Assembly (NCBI RefSeq): GCF_004349105.1
Contig: NZ_SMLB01000025.1
Coordinates: 1 to 64,000, forward strand
Direction: 5' to 3'
Length of the DNA: 64,000 bases
Source of the DNA: Jiangella aurantiaca
Lineage (GTDB): Bacteria > Actinomycetota > Actinomycetes > Jiangellales > Jiangellaceae
The translations under genes were made by a program, and so were the position numbers. Under the pieces are notes generated by a model, which saw only the letters and a program-made list of their open reading frames with translations, was not told where the DNA came from and did not search any database. Positions 1 to 8,462 of this stretch are shown piece by piece. Numbering within the stretch: position 1 is the first letter of the stretch; each line of letters opens with the position of its first letter.

Positions 1-874
1 GCACCCTGGTCGCCTCGCACGTCATCGGCTACGACGCCAACGGCAACCGCACGTCCGACGTCGCCCGCACGATGGACGCCGACAACCACGGCACCTACCT
101 GGACCGCACCTACGCGTACACGTTCGACCCGCGCGACCGGGTCGCCGGCGTGGAGAAGACCGACACCTCCACCGGCTCCGTCCTGTCCACCGAGACCTAC
201 GTGCACGACGCCGCCTCCAACGTGATCTCCCAGACCGTCGCTGGCGTGACCACGTCGTTCCTCTACGACCGCAACCGGCTGCTCACCGCGACCTCGGCCG
301 GCGTGGTCGGCACCTACAACTACGACCCGTTCGGCCGCCTGGACACCGTCACCAGCGCCGGCCTGGTCATCGAGCGGTACACCTACGACGGGTTCGACCG
401 CGTCGCCACCCACCGGTCCCTGGAGTCCGACGGGTCCAGTTCGACGACGGCGTACGCGTACGACCCGATGGACCGGACCGCATCGCGCACCTCCGACGCC
501 GGCACAGCGGGTGCGGAGATCACCGAGTTCTCCTACCTCGGGCTGTCCGGCGAGGTGCTGTCCGAGGAGGTCGCCGGGCAGATCCAGACCTCCTACCAGT
601 ACTCGCCGTGGGGTCAGCGGCTCTCCCAGATCAAATACACCACCGACACCGGCGGGTCGGTGGAGGAGGACTCCTACTACGGGTACAACCCGCACACCGA
701 CGTCGAAACCCTCACCGACACCACCGGCAACACCCGCGCCACCTACGGCTACACCGCCTACGGCAAGGACGACGACACCCAGTTCACCGGCGCCGACGCG
801 CCCGATCCCGGCGACCCCGGCGCGGAGCCGTACAACGTGTACCGGTTCAACGCCAAACGATTCGACCCCGCCTC
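1..874 (+). repeat. Copy 1 of large direct repeat (RHS core)
   Basis: Bases 1-866 match 2240-3105 with no difference that I could find. The first mismatch is at 867/3106 and identity is lost after 874/3113. The left border is beyond the window. The repeat covers the RHS repeat core but stops before the conserved end of the core. Lack of divergence implies a recent duplication or ongoing gene conversion. Confidence 0.92.
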
Positions 875-1793
875 CGACAGCTACGACATGGGATTCCGGG
901 ACTACTCACCGGGCCTGAACCGGTTCCTCACCCGCGACAACTACAACGGCGCCCTCGCCGACCTCAACCTCGGCCTCAGTCCCTGGACCATGAACCGCTA
1001 CGCCTACGCCGGCGGCAACCCACTCGGATTCGTCGAACTCGACGGCCACCGCCCCGTCGCGATCGACGGCGGCGGCATCAGCACACCACCCACCGATACA
1101 TCAGAGAGCACAGAACTCCCAGGAGTCGCGCCGCTCGCCGGCAACCCCACGGACAGCGGTGCACCCTCGCCTGGCGGAACGCATAGCACATATTCTGCTC
1201 CGTGGGCGGGTGTGCGAACACCGCTGGACTACTACTTCCTGACTGCAACCGCCATGACCTCCTATGGTGCAGGCGGTGAGATACGGTCGTTCCGGCAAGC
1301 GCAGAACACCGTTCGGGACATGTTCGATCGAGGTAGCGCACGTGCACGCGGCCTGGCGGACCGCATCGACGAACTCATGGCGCAGGTCGATCGAACTGGC
1401 GCGGCAGGCGAGGCACTCCGCGGCGTCGGCATCCTCGGCGCGCTTAGCTCCGCCGGAACCACCGCCATCACGCAATGGCAAAATGATGCCAACGACCCAT
1501 CGCTGTCCACCGCCGACCGCATTGCGAGGACTACAGTCAGAACGACTCTCGTGGCCGGTATCGGTGGCGCCGGCGCCGTTGCCGGCGCTGGCGTTTGTGG
1601 CGTCATCAGCGGGGGCCTCCTCGCAGCAGGCTGCGGCGTGGCTGGCGCCGAGGCTGGGGCCTGGCTTGGGGATCAGGTAGCCAATTGGGCCGTACCCTTG
1701 GTACCTAGCGCGATTGACAGTGTCCAGGGCATTGTGGGAGGGGCAGGAGACGTCGCTGCTGACGTAGGGTCGTTCTTGAATCCATTTGACTGA
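3..1793 (+). CDS. RHS/YD-repeat polymorphic toxin, 3' part (5' end outside window)
   Basis: The frame is open from the window edge, so the N-terminus is missing. The visible core is a run of YD repeats (GYDANGN, YNYDPFGRLDTV and YAYDPMDRT types), which form the shell of RHS/teneurin-like cages. It ends with the conserved RHS-associated core (RFDPASDSYDMGFRDYSPG, then NRYAYAGGNPLGF) near nt 850-1050. The last ~247 codons (about 1050-1793) are unrelated to RHS repeats. They carry charged helical segments and a glycine/alanine-rich hydrophobic stretch near nt 1550-1690, suggestive of a membrane-active tip. This tip is visibly AT-richer than the core, as expected for an exchanged toxin cassette. 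A small membrane protein follows 18 bp later and is the likely immunity partner. RHS identity is secure; the toxic activity is inferred. Confidence 0.88.
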   Translation, partial: TLVASHVIGYDANGNRTSDVARTMDADNHGTYLDRTYAYTFDPRDRVAGVEKTDTSTGSVLSTETYVHDAASNVISQTVAGVTTSFLYDRNRLLTATSAGVVGTYNYDPFGRLDTVTSAGLVIERYTYDGFDRVATHRSLESDGSSSTTAYAYDPMDRTASRTSDAGTAGAEITEFSYLGLSGEVLSEEVAGQIQTSYQYSPWGQRLSQIKYTTDTGGSVEEDSYYGYNPHTDVETLTDTTGNTRATYGYTAYGKDDDTQFTGADAPDPGDPGAEPYNVYRFNAKRFDPASDSYDMGFRDYSPGLNRFLTRDNYNGALADLNLGLSPWTMNRYAYAGGNPLGFVELDGHRPVAIDGGGISTPPTDTSESTELPGVAPLAGNPTDSGAPSPGGTHSTYSAPWAGVRTPLDYYFLTATAMTSYGAGGEIRSFRQAQNTVRDMFDRGSARARGLADRIDELMAQVDRTGAAGEALRGVGILGALSSAGTTAITQWQNDANDPSLSTADRIARTTVRTTLVAGIGGAGAVAGAGVCGVISGGLLAAGCGVAGAEAGAWLGDQVANWAVPLVPSAIDSVQGIVGGAGDVAADVGSFLNPFD

Positions 1794-1811
1794 CAACAGA
1801 ACGGGACGGGA

Positions 1812-2228
1812 ATGCTTGCCGGAGACTCGGCGCTCTTTATTGGCGCTCTGCCCTTCTTGTTCCTCGGCGTTGGTTTGCGTATCGGACACTTCCGCAAGGT
1901 CGCCTGGATATATTTTGACCTAACTTGGCCAGCGATATTCCGGAATGGAATCTTCGCTTCGCTGCCAACAGGAGTTGTTATTCTCTGTGGATACGTATTG
2001 AGCCTTCCTGGGCAGCAGAATAGCGGCAGCTTCGAGAACACCCCGTTTCAGAATCTTGTTCTGCTCGCCCTGCTGGCATCCTTAGCCCTGCTGTTTATCA
2101 CCTTCTTTCGCCCTCCCAAGTTCTTGAAGCCAAAGTGGATCCGTGAGGCCGATCGAGAGATAACAGCCGACCCATCCGGTTGGCGATCAAGAGCGGAGAT
2201 CTTGCGCGGCCTACGCCGCAGGAATTGA
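1812..2228 (+). CDS. Small membrane protein, putative immunity protein for the RHS tip
   Basis: 138 residues from an ATG preceded by a GGGACGGGA ribosome-binding site. Three hydrophobic segments are visible (about residues 7-25, 48-66 and 82-100), followed by a basic and acidic soluble tail. It lies 18 bp downstream of the RHS gene on the same strand and shares the lower GC content of the RHS tip, so the two probably arrived together. I recognise no named family. Its position immediately after a polymorphic toxin tip with a hydrophobic domain suggests an immunity protein that protects the producer membrane; this is inference from context. Confidence 0.6.
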   Translation: MLAGDSALFIGALPFLFLGVGLRIGHFRKVAWIYFDLTWPAIFRNGIFASLPTGVVILCGYVLSLPGQQNSGSFENTPFQNLVLLALLASLALLFITFFRPPKFLKPKWIREADREITADPSGWRSRAEILRGLRRRN

Positions 2229-2239
2229 TGGCGATCGGT

Positions 2240-3105
2240 GCACCCTGGTCGCCTCGCACGTCATCGGCTACGACGCCAACGGCAACCGCACGTCCGACGT
2301 CGCCCGCACGATGGACGCCGACAACCACGGCACCTACCTGGACCGCACCTACGCGTACACGTTCGACCCGCGCGACCGGGTCGCCGGCGTGGAGAAGACC
2401 GACACCTCCACCGGCTCCGTCCTGTCCACCGAGACCTACGTGCACGACGCCGCCTCCAACGTGATCTCCCAGACCGTCGCTGGCGTGACCACGTCGTTCC
2501 TCTACGACCGCAACCGGCTGCTCACCGCGACCTCGGCCGGCGTGGTCGGCACCTACAACTACGACCCGTTCGGCCGCCTGGACACCGTCACCAGCGCCGG
2601 CCTGGTCATCGAGCGGTACACCTACGACGGGTTCGACCGCGTCGCCACCCACCGGTCCCTGGAGTCCGACGGGTCCAGTTCGACGACGGCGTACGCGTAC
2701 GACCCGATGGACCGGACCGCATCGCGCACCTCCGACGCCGGCACAGCGGGTGCGGAGATCACCGAGTTCTCCTACCTCGGGCTGTCCGGCGAGGTGCTGT
2801 CCGAGGAGGTCGCCGGGCAGATCCAGACCTCCTACCAGTACTCGCCGTGGGGTCAGCGGCTCTCCCAGATCAAATACACCACCGACACCGGCGGGTCGGT
2901 GGAGGAGGACTCCTACTACGGGTACAACCCGCACACCGACGTCGAAACCCTCACCGACACCACCGGCAACACCCGCGCCACCTACGGCTACACCGCCTAC
3001 GGCAAGGACGACGACACCCAGTTCACCGGCGCCGACGCGCCCGATCCCGGCGACCCCGGCGCGGAGCCGTACAACGTGTACCGGTTCAACGCCAAACGAT
3101 TCGAC
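2240..3105 (+). pseudogene. Orphan RHS core fragment, truncated at both ends
   Basis: The reading frame matches the RHS core of the first gene exactly, but there is no start codon of its own and the frame runs in from the end of the putative immunity gene. At 3106 the match ends just before the DP-containing core terminus. From there the RHS frame reads arginine- and proline-rich nonsense, while a different frame becomes protein-like. The copy therefore lacks an intact core end and any toxin tip. Orphan RHS fragments downstream of a full gene can serve as donors for tip exchange, but this one looks broken rather than functional. Confidence 0.8.
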
Positions 3106-4007: not shown

Positions 4008-4355
4008 ATCGGTCGACACGGGATCGATGGCTTGCTGTGGCCAGTCGAGGTGCTGGGAAGCGTGGCGTTCGTCGCTGTCGCGCGTAGTCTCGCCGAAATC
4101 GATCGGTACGTGCCTCGGGGCCGGCTGGGCGTCATCATCTATCCGATCTCGCGGCGAGGTTCGCTCGAACAGATACACCAGGCAGATCGCGACGTGGACC
4201 GCAGTCGCTGGCGCCGTTGTCGGTACGCTGCTGACAGCCGCTGGCCAACTGCTCGCGGGCCAGCCAATCCGGGGGGGAAGTGGGGGATCCGGCCCCGAGG
4301 ACGACGAAGCGGCGGCCCCATACTGGGCTCCGCCGCTGGTCAGACCCGGTGTGAG

Positions 4356-4428
<73 letters not shown>

Positions 4429-6743: not shown

Positions 6744-6775
6744 GCGCACCGTTCCATTGACATGGAACGGTGTGC
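6744..6775 (+). promoter_or_regulatory. Long palindromic operator over the sialidase promoter
   Basis: GCGCACCGTTCCAT-TGAC-ATGGAACGGTGTGC has 14-bp arms with one mismatch. The inner 11 bp of each arm (CACCGTTCCAT/ATGGAACGGTG) are perfect. A TTGACA -35 element (6757-6762) lies at its centre, with a weak TTGCAT -10 at 6780-6785. A repressor dimer bound here would occlude the promoter of the sialidase that starts at 6846. No regulator gene is adjacent. Confidence 0.6.
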
Positions 6776-6845
6776 CGTATTGCATGATCAGCACCCCCGC
6801 CCTCGGCCGCCGGCTCTCGCGCCCGCGATCCGGCCTGGAGGAACC

Positions 6846-8462
6846 ATGAGATCCGTTCCGATCGTGCTGGCCGGCGTCGTCGCGTTCGGCGTCGTGAGCA
6901 GCCCGGCGAGCGGCACGCCGTCGCCGCCGTCGGCCCCCGTCCCGGACACCGCGGCGAGCGGCCCCAGCTGGTCGCCCGGCACCCCCGACGTCGTGATCGC
7001 GCAGGCCGCCCCGGGTAAGAAGCTCCACTTCCCGAACGCCGAGCGGCTGACCGACGGGTCCATCGTCGCGGTCGCACGCGAGGGCGCCGGGCACACCGGC
7101 CAGGATGGCCGGCTGCTGATGCTGACCAGCGGCGACGGCGGCAGCACCTGGTCGCCGCCCGAGGTCGTCCACGACAGCCCGTACGACGACCGCGACCCGA
7201 TGATCACGCAACTCGCCTCCGGCCGGCTGTTGCTGAGCTGGTTCCAGAACGACTACTCCGTCCGCCCGCCGGAGCCCATGGGCACGTTCGTGGCGCACAG
7301 CGACGACGGCGGCGAGACGTGGTCCGCGCCGGTCGCGGTGCAGTCGATGCTCAGCGGCGAGTCCGACATCGTCGACACCTACGAGCTGGGCTGGAACGCC
7401 AGCCACGGCCAGATCAAGGAGCTGCCCGGCGGCGACCTCGTCGTCCCGCTGTACGGCACGATCCCCGACGACAAGTGGCAGAAGGCGACAGTCGTCCGCA
7501 GCACTGACGGCGGCGAGACCTGGTCGGCGTCGACGGAGTCGCTGATCGCGTCGGCGACCGGCACGCACTACCAGGAGCCGGTGCTGACGGTGCTGCCCGG
7601 CGGCGTGGTGCACGCGCTGCTTCGCATCGGCACGGCCGCGTCGACGATGGGGGCGGTGTACTCCCAGGAGTCGTGGTCGTACGACGGCGGGCTGACTTGG
7701 TCCGCGCCCGCGGCGATCGACCTGGTCACGTCGTCGGCGCACACAGAGGTGCTGAGCAACGGTGACGTGTTCCTCGCCTACGGCGACCTGTCCGGGCACT
7801 TCACGGACAAGCGGGGCACGGTGGGCGCCGTGATCCGGTCGCCGCTGTCGCCGTGGAACGGGGCGGCGCGCGAGCTGGTCTGGGACTCCGGGACCGGCGA
7901 CCAGGCCAACCCCGCCGTCGTCGAGGTGCGTCCCGGGCGGGTGCTCGTCATCGGCTTCGACTCCGCGACCAGCCGGCTCGTCGGCACCTTCGTCGACGTC
8001 GCCGAGATCCGGGCGGAGCGGCCCGACCCCCGGCGGGTGGACCTGGGCTCGCTGGTGGCGGCCGGCGAGGCCTCGGTGTCGACGGACATGACGCACGTGC
8101 AGGCGGGCCGGCCGGGAGTGGGCGTGCTGGGCGCGATCGACGGCGTCGTCGGCTACTGGGATGCCGCGTGGGCGCCGCGGGCCGCTCCGGCGTCGTACGC
8201 CGTCGAGTTCGCCACGCCGCGCCGGCTGAGCGAGGTCGGGGTGGCGCTCAAGCCCGGCTACGCGTCGGCCGCGGTCGTCTCGGTGCGAGGCGGCGACGGC
8301 GAATGGCGCGACGTCGGCACGCTGGACTCGGTCGTCCGCTGGGGCGACGACCTCACCTGGTTCGACGCGTTCGGCGTGGCGGACGCCGTGCGCGTGAGCA
8401 TCACCTCGTCGAACGGCTGGGCCGTGCTCGCGGAGGTCGGTGTCCGCGCCCCGGCCGGCTGA
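6846..8462 (+). CDS. Secreted sialidase-like glycoside hydrolase with F5/8-type C-terminal domain
   Basis: 538 residues from the ATG at 6846, preceded by GGAGG. The N-terminus is a Sec-type signal peptide (VLAGVVAFGVVSSPASG). The catalytic part has at least four Asp-box (BNR) motifs of the S-x-D-x-G-x-x-W type: SGDGGSTWS, SDDGGETWS, STDGGETWS and SYDGGLTWS. These mark six-bladed sialidase propellers. The last ~120 residues resemble a discoidin/F5-8 carbohydrate-binding domain. It is predicted to be exported and to cleave terminal sialic acids or a related glycan; the exact substrate cannot be read. Regulation is probably through the palindrome at 6744-6775. Confidence 0.85.
   Translation: MRSVPIVLAGVVAFGVVSSPASGTPSPPSAPVPDTAASGPSWSPGTPDVVIAQAAPGKKLHFPNAERLTDGSIVAVAREGAGHTGQDGRLLMLTSGDGGSTWSPPEVVHDSPYDDRDPMITQLASGRLLLSWFQNDYSVRPPEPMGTFVAHSDDGGETWSAPVAVQSMLSGESDIVDTYELGWNASHGQIKELPGGDLVVPLYGTIPDDKWQKATVVRSTDGGETWSASTESLIASATGTHYQEPVLTVLPGGVVHALLRIGTAASTMGAVYSQESWSYDGGLTWSAPAAIDLVTSSAHTEVLSNGDVFLAYGDLSGHFTDKRGTVGAVIRSPLSPWNGAARELVWDSGTGDQANPAVVEVRPGRVLVIGFDSATSRLVGTFVDVAEIRAERPDPRRVDLGSLVAAGEASVSTDMTHVQAGRPGVGVLGAIDGVVGYWDAAWAPRAAPASYAVEFATPRRLSEVGVALKPGYASAAVVSVRGGDGEWRDVGTLDSVVRWGDDLTWFDAFGVADAVRVSITSSNGWAVLAEVGVRAPAG

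What the first reader, a model, noticed from the sequence alone, without database searches (positions are those of the whole stretch)
1050..2228. RHS toxin tip with a hydrophobic domain and adjacent membrane immunity candidate
The RHS core ends near nt 1050 and is followed by ~247 codons unlike RHS repeats, containing a Gly/Ala-rich hydrophobic stretch. A three-helix membrane protein follows 18 bp later. Both are visibly AT-richer than the core. Polymorphic toxins are known to end in exchangeable tips followed by immunity genes. A tip with a hydrophobic domain plus a membrane immunity protein suggests a membrane-targeting toxin not matching any tip family I can name.
Basis: partly seen in the sequence, partly recalled or inferred. 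Interest (0 to 1): 0.6.

Follow-up and report, generated by a model that had tools for sequence, protein, structure and literature searches.

The report
Membrane-toxin tip with its membrane immunity
A giant secreted bacterial RHS protein ends in an exchangeable, water-shunning helical tip that probably punctures or depolarises the membranes of competing bacteria, and the small membrane protein encoded right after it probably protects the producer; the pair belongs to a previously unnamed toxin-immunity family that rides on two different delivery proteins.

Summary
The window starts at a contig end; the RHS gene continues from another contig (127-nt overlap, bridged by a sibling genome) and is about 2,860 aa. 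Its conserved core ends at about nt 1050. Sibling species carry the same RHS gene (88-90% nt identity up to that point) with unrelated tips, one with a pretoxin HINT domain, so this is a true exchangeable tip. The tip matches no library family, but belongs to a family I assembled from actinobacterial genomes, mostly at the C-termini of WXG100/type VII effectors and once more on an RHS protein. Of 17 members, 15 are followed directly by a small gene with 2-3 membrane helices (5 of 24 for unrelated RHS tips, p = 2.5e-5), usually with a PxxLxPxW motif. The proteins end soon after the hydrophobic stretch, leaving no room for an enzyme behind it; this favours a pore-forming or depolarising toxin like Tse5, TspA, TelE and EsxX (inferred, untested). 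Caveat: the window tip itself is not enriched in glycine-zipper spacing. New member of a known kind.

The parts
1..1052 (+). C-terminal part of the RHS core (YD repeats and Rhs-associated core); the rest of the ~2,860-aa protein lies on contig C50 (L004:2910-9826)
   Evidence: TIGR03696 and PF05593 matches; 127-nt exact overlap with C50 end, bridged by sibling locus L083:8400-8274; conserved at 88-90% nt in siblings
1053..1793 (+). Exchangeable toxin tip, 246 codons plus stop
   Evidence: sibling genes diverge completely from here; no library match; leave-one-out family profile E 2.3e-16
1053..1250 (+). Low-complexity linker between core and tip, Pro/Ser/Thr/Gly-rich
   Evidence: sequence
1473..1505 (+). 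Family signature QWQNDANDPSL just before the hydrophobic stretch
   Evidence: conserved in tip alignments A2 and A4
1545..1673 (+). Gly/Ala-rich hydrophobic stretch, proposed membrane-inserting hairpin; holds one GxxxGxxxG (GAEAGAWLG)
   Evidence: alignment A4; composition and zipper test: family enriched, window copy not
1674..1793 (+). C-terminal amphipathic segment ending NPFD
   Evidence: alignments A1, A2, A4
1812..2228 (+). Membrane immunity protein, 138 aa, three predicted helices (about 1815-1871, 1950-2006, 2052-2108), predicted N-out/C-in
   Evidence: leave-one-out profile E 2.7e-5
2112..2138 (+). PPKFLKPKW motif at the end of the last helix of the immunity protein
   Evidence: PxxLxPxW-type motif in 11 of 15 downstream membrane proteins
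1..866 (+). Copy 1 of a perfect direct repeat (RHS core fragment)
2240..3105 (+). Copy 2 of the repeat: truncated, start-less core fragment 11 nt behind the immunity stop codon; no tip follows in frame
   Evidence: 866 of 866 identical; exact left boundary

Best explanation
nt 1053-2228 is a toxin-immunity cassette at the 3' end of a secreted actinobacterial RHS polymorphic toxin. Steps shown: the core is orthologous to RHS genes of sibling species and the tip is exchanged at a fixed boundary; the tip belongs to a family with a QW..DA.DPSL signature, a Gly/Ala-rich hydrophobic stretch and a short amphipathic end; members sit on RHS or WXG100 N-termini and are followed by a small polytopic membrane protein. 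Steps inferred: the RHS shell encloses the hydrophobic tip and carries it out; the tip is released, probably by cleavage near the DGH boundary as in other RHS proteins; it inserts into the cytoplasmic membrane of a competitor and forms ion-conducting pores that collapse the membrane potential; the producer and its kin are protected by the adjacent three-helix protein (N-out, C-in), which meets the toxin inside the membrane.
For: Exchange at a fixed point: siblings with 88-90% identical core nt but different tips, one with PT-HINT, none followed by a polytopic gene. Family built from independent loci; leave-one-out profiles recover both window genes. 15 of 17 members followed by an ORF with at least two membrane helices against 5 of 24 unrelated RHS tips, Fisher p 2.5e-5. 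Independent searches with the tip and the immunity profiles meet at one locus in a distant genome, G492:C151. The protein ends within a few dozen residues of the hydrophobic stretch, and the part N-terminal to it differs between chassis, so the conserved element is the hydrophobic domain itself. Tandem immunity paralogues (L024, 82 of 133 identical; L041) and an orphan immunity homologue (L056), as known for TsaI and ExiCD (PMC7456083, PMC12744356). Positive-inside charge pattern with a basic loop 1 and tail.
Against: No activity data. The window tip's GxxxG count is not above shuffles (p 0.42-0.55), nor is that of the other RHS-borne member; the other 9 aligned members have p of 0.01 or less for GxxxG. 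The AlphaFold model of the tip is poor (mean pLDDT 38.7, two sequences in the alignment), all-helical but not usable. Two of 17 collected members (L040, L042) show no membrane gene next to them. The immunity family is weakly conserved (about 20% identity). No PDB homologue of the tip that is a known toxin.
Confidence: 0.75

Rival explanations
1. The hydrophobic stretch is only a translocation (entry) domain and the toxic activity is an unrecognised enzyme located in the ~140 residues before it, with the membrane protein acting on entry.
For: Some T6SS effectors carry transmembrane segments for translocation bound by Eag chaperones (PMC7773334, abstract). The window has a helical region of unknown function before the stretch (nt ~1251-1472).
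Against: Across the family the hydrophobic stretch plus signature is what is conserved; what precedes it changes with the chassis, and nothing enzymatic follows it. No enzyme family matched.
Confidence: 0.12
2. The C-terminal hydrophobic domain anchors the RHS protein to the producer's own membrane or surface, and the membrane gene is an assembly partner, not an immunity protein.
For: A hydrophobic C-terminus next to a membrane protein would also look like this.
Against: Siblings replace it with other tips including a pretoxin-HINT tip; the same domain ends WXG100 effectors; immunity genes are tandemly duplicated or orphaned.
Confidence: 0.06
3. Non-functional remnant: an old cassette scarred by recombination between the 866-nt repeats, no longer expressed or delivered.
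For: Copy 2 is truncated and tipless; the third-position GC of tip and immunity is low; the assembly breaks here.
Against: The RHS gene is one open frame of ~2,860 aa across the contig junction with a Sec-type N-terminus, and tip and immunity frames are intact and recovered by family profiles.
Confidence: 0.07

Closest known systems
Tse5/Tsi5 (Pseudomonas aeruginosa Rhs pore-forming toxin, PMC10684867, PMC9637101)
   Same: A hydrophobic helical toxin at the C-terminus of an RHS protein; the RHS shell encloses an integral-membrane toxin; membrane-bound immunity protein.
   Different: T6SS-delivered in a Gram-negative; no sequence match of our tip profile to any Rhs chain in the PDB set; here a Sec-type secreted actinobacterial RHS.
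TspA/TsaI (Staphylococcus aureus T7SS, PMC7456083)
   Same: Membrane-depolarising polymorphic C-terminal domain with an adjacent polytopic N-out/C-in immunity protein found in arrays of paralogues.
   Different: TsaI is DUF443 with five predicted helices; ours has three and no Pfam match; different chassis.
TelE/TipE and EsxX/ExiAB-ExiCD (T7SSb LXG glycine-zipper toxins, PMC10434224, PMC12744356)
   Same: Gly-rich hydrophobic C-terminus as the toxic element; for EsxX a membrane immunity pair neutralises the secreted toxin.
   Different: LXG N-terminus and DUF5085 soluble immunity; neither found here. The window copy lacks a statistically clear glycine-zipper repeat.
Orphan rhs toxin modules (Koskiniemi et al. 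2014, PMC3967940)
   Different: Here the downstream copy is 866 nt, 100% identical and has lost its tip, so the live cassette is flanked by direct repeats.

Membership tests
RHS polymorphic toxin | YD/RHS repeats and Rhs-associated core domain | tested here: met
   TIGR03696 E 2.1e-11; PF05593 12 stretches, E 3.4e-67 in the C50 part
RHS polymorphic toxin | Variable tip exchanged at a fixed core boundary between relatives | tested here: met
   siblings G009, G004, G015 with conserved core and different tips
RHS polymorphic toxin | Immunity gene directly downstream of the tip | tested here: met
   gap 18 nt; family-wide adjacency 15 of 17; neutralisation itself not tested
RHS polymorphic toxin | Autocleavage releasing the tip | not testable with these tools
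   known for Tse5 (PMC10684867); only position inferred here
Glycine-zipper T7SS toxins (TelE/EsxX) | Repeated GxxxG in a C-terminal hydrophobic stretch | tested here: inconclusive
   GxxxG enrichment p of 0.01 or less in 9 of 11 family tips, but p 0.42 for the window tip
Glycine-zipper T7SS toxins (TelE/EsxX) | LXG N-terminal domain | tested here: not met
   RHS chassis in the window; relatives show WXG100/T7SS_signal matches instead
Glycine-zipper T7SS toxins (TelE/EsxX) | DUF5085 soluble immunity partner | tested here: not met
   adjacent gene is a three-helix membrane protein, no Pfam match
Tse5-CT pore-forming toxin | Sequence homology to Tse5-CT | tested here: not met
   tip profile against PDB sequences gives no Rhs chain
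Tse5-CT pore-forming toxin | Membrane pores and depolarisation | not testable with these tools
   needs expression experiments
TsaI / DUF443 immunity | DUF443 domain | tested here: not met
   no match in Pfam

The most novel reading that the evidence does not exclude
One membrane-depolarising toxin-immunity pair is shared between two unrelated delivery scaffolds of Gram-positive bacteria, RHS shells and WXG100/type VII effectors, and the shielding of the hydrophobic toxin before export differs with the scaffold: an RHS cage in one case, a separate small partner protein (the third gene seen at several non-RHS loci and not at the window locus) in the other, while the same kind of membrane immunity protein serves both.
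Probability: 0.35. Interest if true: 0.6.

Novelty: new member of a known kind. Interest (0 to 1): 0.45.

Why it matters
Membrane-depolarising polymorphic toxins are well studied in Pseudomonas, Staphylococcus and Streptococcus; in the Actinomycetota, which have many RHS and WXG100 proteins, a limited literature search here found none described. This gives a candidate pair, a signature for toxin and immunity, and a natural comparison of the same toxin type on two scaffolds. The 866-nt repeats around the cassette also offer a concrete case for how RHS tips are swapped.

Tried and rejected
Library searches of the tip and the membrane gene in Pfam, NCBIfam, PHROGs and PADLOC: nothing above noise. 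Plasmid, phage and viral-contig searches: no relatives. Structure prediction: only two sequences were eligible for the alignment (window and L033); tip pLDDT 38.7, immunity 55.2, so no fold search was run on them. Early weak hits L006, L007, L008, L010 and L011 were rejected: frames out of coding register or unrelated; L010 is a weak membrane hit behind a transposase-like frame. PDB hits of the tip profile to tape-measure and glycoprotein B chains look like Gly/Ala-rich composition and were not pursued. Pfam on the third gene of non-RHS loci: no match, so its resemblance to DcrB/LpqN-like proteins is only an impression.

Full report
What was claimed and what is there. All of this is in the sequence. 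The core part of the frame 3-1793 matches RHS repeats and the Rhs-associated core domain up to residue 349. The tip is 246 codons plus stop (1053-1793); the membrane gene is 1812-2228. Third-position GC drops from 0.95 in the core to 0.66 in the tip and 0.61 in the membrane gene.

The window begins in mid-gene. It is the start of contig C20 of a 6.6 Mb draft genome. The C50 contig ends with 127 nt identical to window 1-127, the mark of a k-mer overlap, and carries an open frame of 2,305 aa with a signal-peptide-like N-terminus (by eye), Golvesin C-terminal and Disaggr-repeat domains (two stretches each) and twelve RHS repeat stretches. In a sibling genome one uninterrupted locus (L083) aligns with the end of C50 and with window 1-1021 without a break (L083:8400-8274 matches both overlaps), which confirms the junction. 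The full protein is about 2,860 aa.

The tip is exchangeable. Three genomes of the same family hold an RHS gene with the same core (92%, 89% and 66% amino-acid identity). Nucleotide identity of the first two runs at 86-87% over 7.1 kb of the C50 part and 88-90% over window 1 to about 1050, then stops at the codons for DGH. Behind that point each has a different tip: one with a pretoxin-HINT domain (PF07591), two without library matches; the genes behind them have no more than one hydrophobic helix.

The tip belongs to an undescribed family. Pfam, NCBIfam, PHROGs and PADLOC gave nothing for tip or membrane gene. Searches of whole genomes found relatives in many families of the phylum and one in a named genome, Nocardioides luteus (L033), so the phylum is Actinomycetota. 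The shared part is a signature (QW..DA.DPSL.T..R), the hydrophobic Gly/Ala-rich stretch and a short amphipathic end. Most of the closer relatives carry WXG100/T7SS-signal N-termini (L012, L015 and L033; Pfam and NCBIfam matches below cut-off except T7SS_signal in L015); one other is an RHS protein (L024, RHS core E 2.3e-15). A profile built without the window finds the window tip with E 2.3e-16 as the best of 751 window ORFs.

The membrane gene goes with the tip. Applying one rule (an ORF of 80-350 codons with at least two hydrophobic helices starting between 60 nt before and 150 nt after the stop) to 17 tip members gives 15 positives; the same rule on 24 unrelated actinobacterial RHS genes gives 5 (Fisher p 2.5e-5; the 25th RHS locus, L108, is the family member L024 and was left out). 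Some members are close relatives (L012 and L013; L016, L017 and L030), so the p-value overstates independence. Eleven of the 15 membrane proteins have a PxxLxPxW-type motif directly after the last helix (window: PPKFLKPKW; L033: PTPPFIKPKW). Basic residues lie in loop 1 and the tail, few in loop 2, predicting N-out/C-in. The membrane family profile without the window recovers the window gene with E 2.7e-5. In one distant genome the tip search and the immunity search, run separately, land on neighbouring genes (G492:C151). Tandem paralogues of the membrane gene follow the RHS member L024 (82 of 133 identical) and L041, and an orphan homologue with NPPEWLKPHWLREAER sits beside an FtsH-like gene without a toxin (L056). 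Arrays and orphans are known of immunity genes (TsaI, PMC7456083; ExiCD, PMC12744356).

How it most likely works. In every aligned member the protein ends shortly after the hydrophobic stretch, and what precedes it depends on the scaffold; so the hydrophobic domain is probably the active part, not a shuttle for an enzyme. The nearest known mechanism is a membrane-depolarising toxin: Tse5-CT on an RHS shell (PMC10684867, PMC9637101), TspA (PMC7456083), TelE (PMC10434224) and EsxX (PMC12744356). For Tse5 the RHS shell hides the toxin in the producer, so only a membrane immunity is needed (PMC12744356); the same reasoning fits here. Export, release, insertion and depolarisation are inferred.

Limits. 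The window tip has 26 Gly in its last 150 residues but its GxxxG spacing is no better than shuffles (p 0.42-0.55), nor is that of L024; the other nine have p of 0.01 or less for GxxxG. So 'glycine zipper' is a property of the family, only weakly of this copy. AlphaFold models were poor.

The second copy starts 11 nt behind the immunity stop codon, has no start of its own and loses the RHS sequence after 3105. The tip-immunity cassette is therefore flanked by 866-nt direct repeats of the core, as expected after a cassette enters, or duplicates, by recombination in the core, the displaced tip having been lost (inference); compare orphan rhs modules (PMC3967940). Recombination between the repeats would remove toxin and immunity together. 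Because the draft breaks inside the repeat, the number of units in between cannot be fixed.

Verdict. Observation confirmed; interpretation supported; a new toxin-immunity family of a known kind, with a predicted but untested membrane-depolarising action.

Noticed in passing
window 1-866 and 2240-3105: Perfect 866-nt direct repeat of the RHS core flanking the tip-immunity cassette; window start coincides with a contig end inside the first copy.
   Followed up: yes
window 4355-4428 (-) and L004:806-1732 (-): tRNA-Lys gene close to one side of the RHS locus and a TrwC-type relaxase (PF08751) on the other: the RHS gene may lie in an integrated conjugative element. No copy of the tRNA end was found in the C50 stretch examined.
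   Followed up: partly
L033:4754-5188, L012:2326-2769, L054:213-692 (-), L018:2159-2596, L017:3-470 (-): A third gene of a shared, unnamed family follows toxin and immunity at non-RHS loci and is not seen at the window locus; it may be a cytoplasmic partner or chaperone. No Pfam match.
   Followed up: partly
L056 (reverse strand, ORF 1372-2190 in reverse-complement coordinates): Orphan homologue of the membrane immunity protein next to an FtsH-like AAA protease, no toxin upstream.
   Followed up: partly
L024 and L041 (reverse strand): Tandem paralogues of the membrane immunity gene behind the toxin.
   Followed up: partly
L084:11939-12175: In sibling G004 a fragment of the RHS gene's Golvesin-type domain lies downstream of the locus, fused to the end of a gene whose counterpart lies upstream of the RHS gene in the window's genome: a rearranged relic.
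   Followed up: no
window 6762-8462 (+): Secreted-looking protein with four Asp-box-like DGG.TW repeats, a probable sialidase/BNR-type protein.
   Followed up: no
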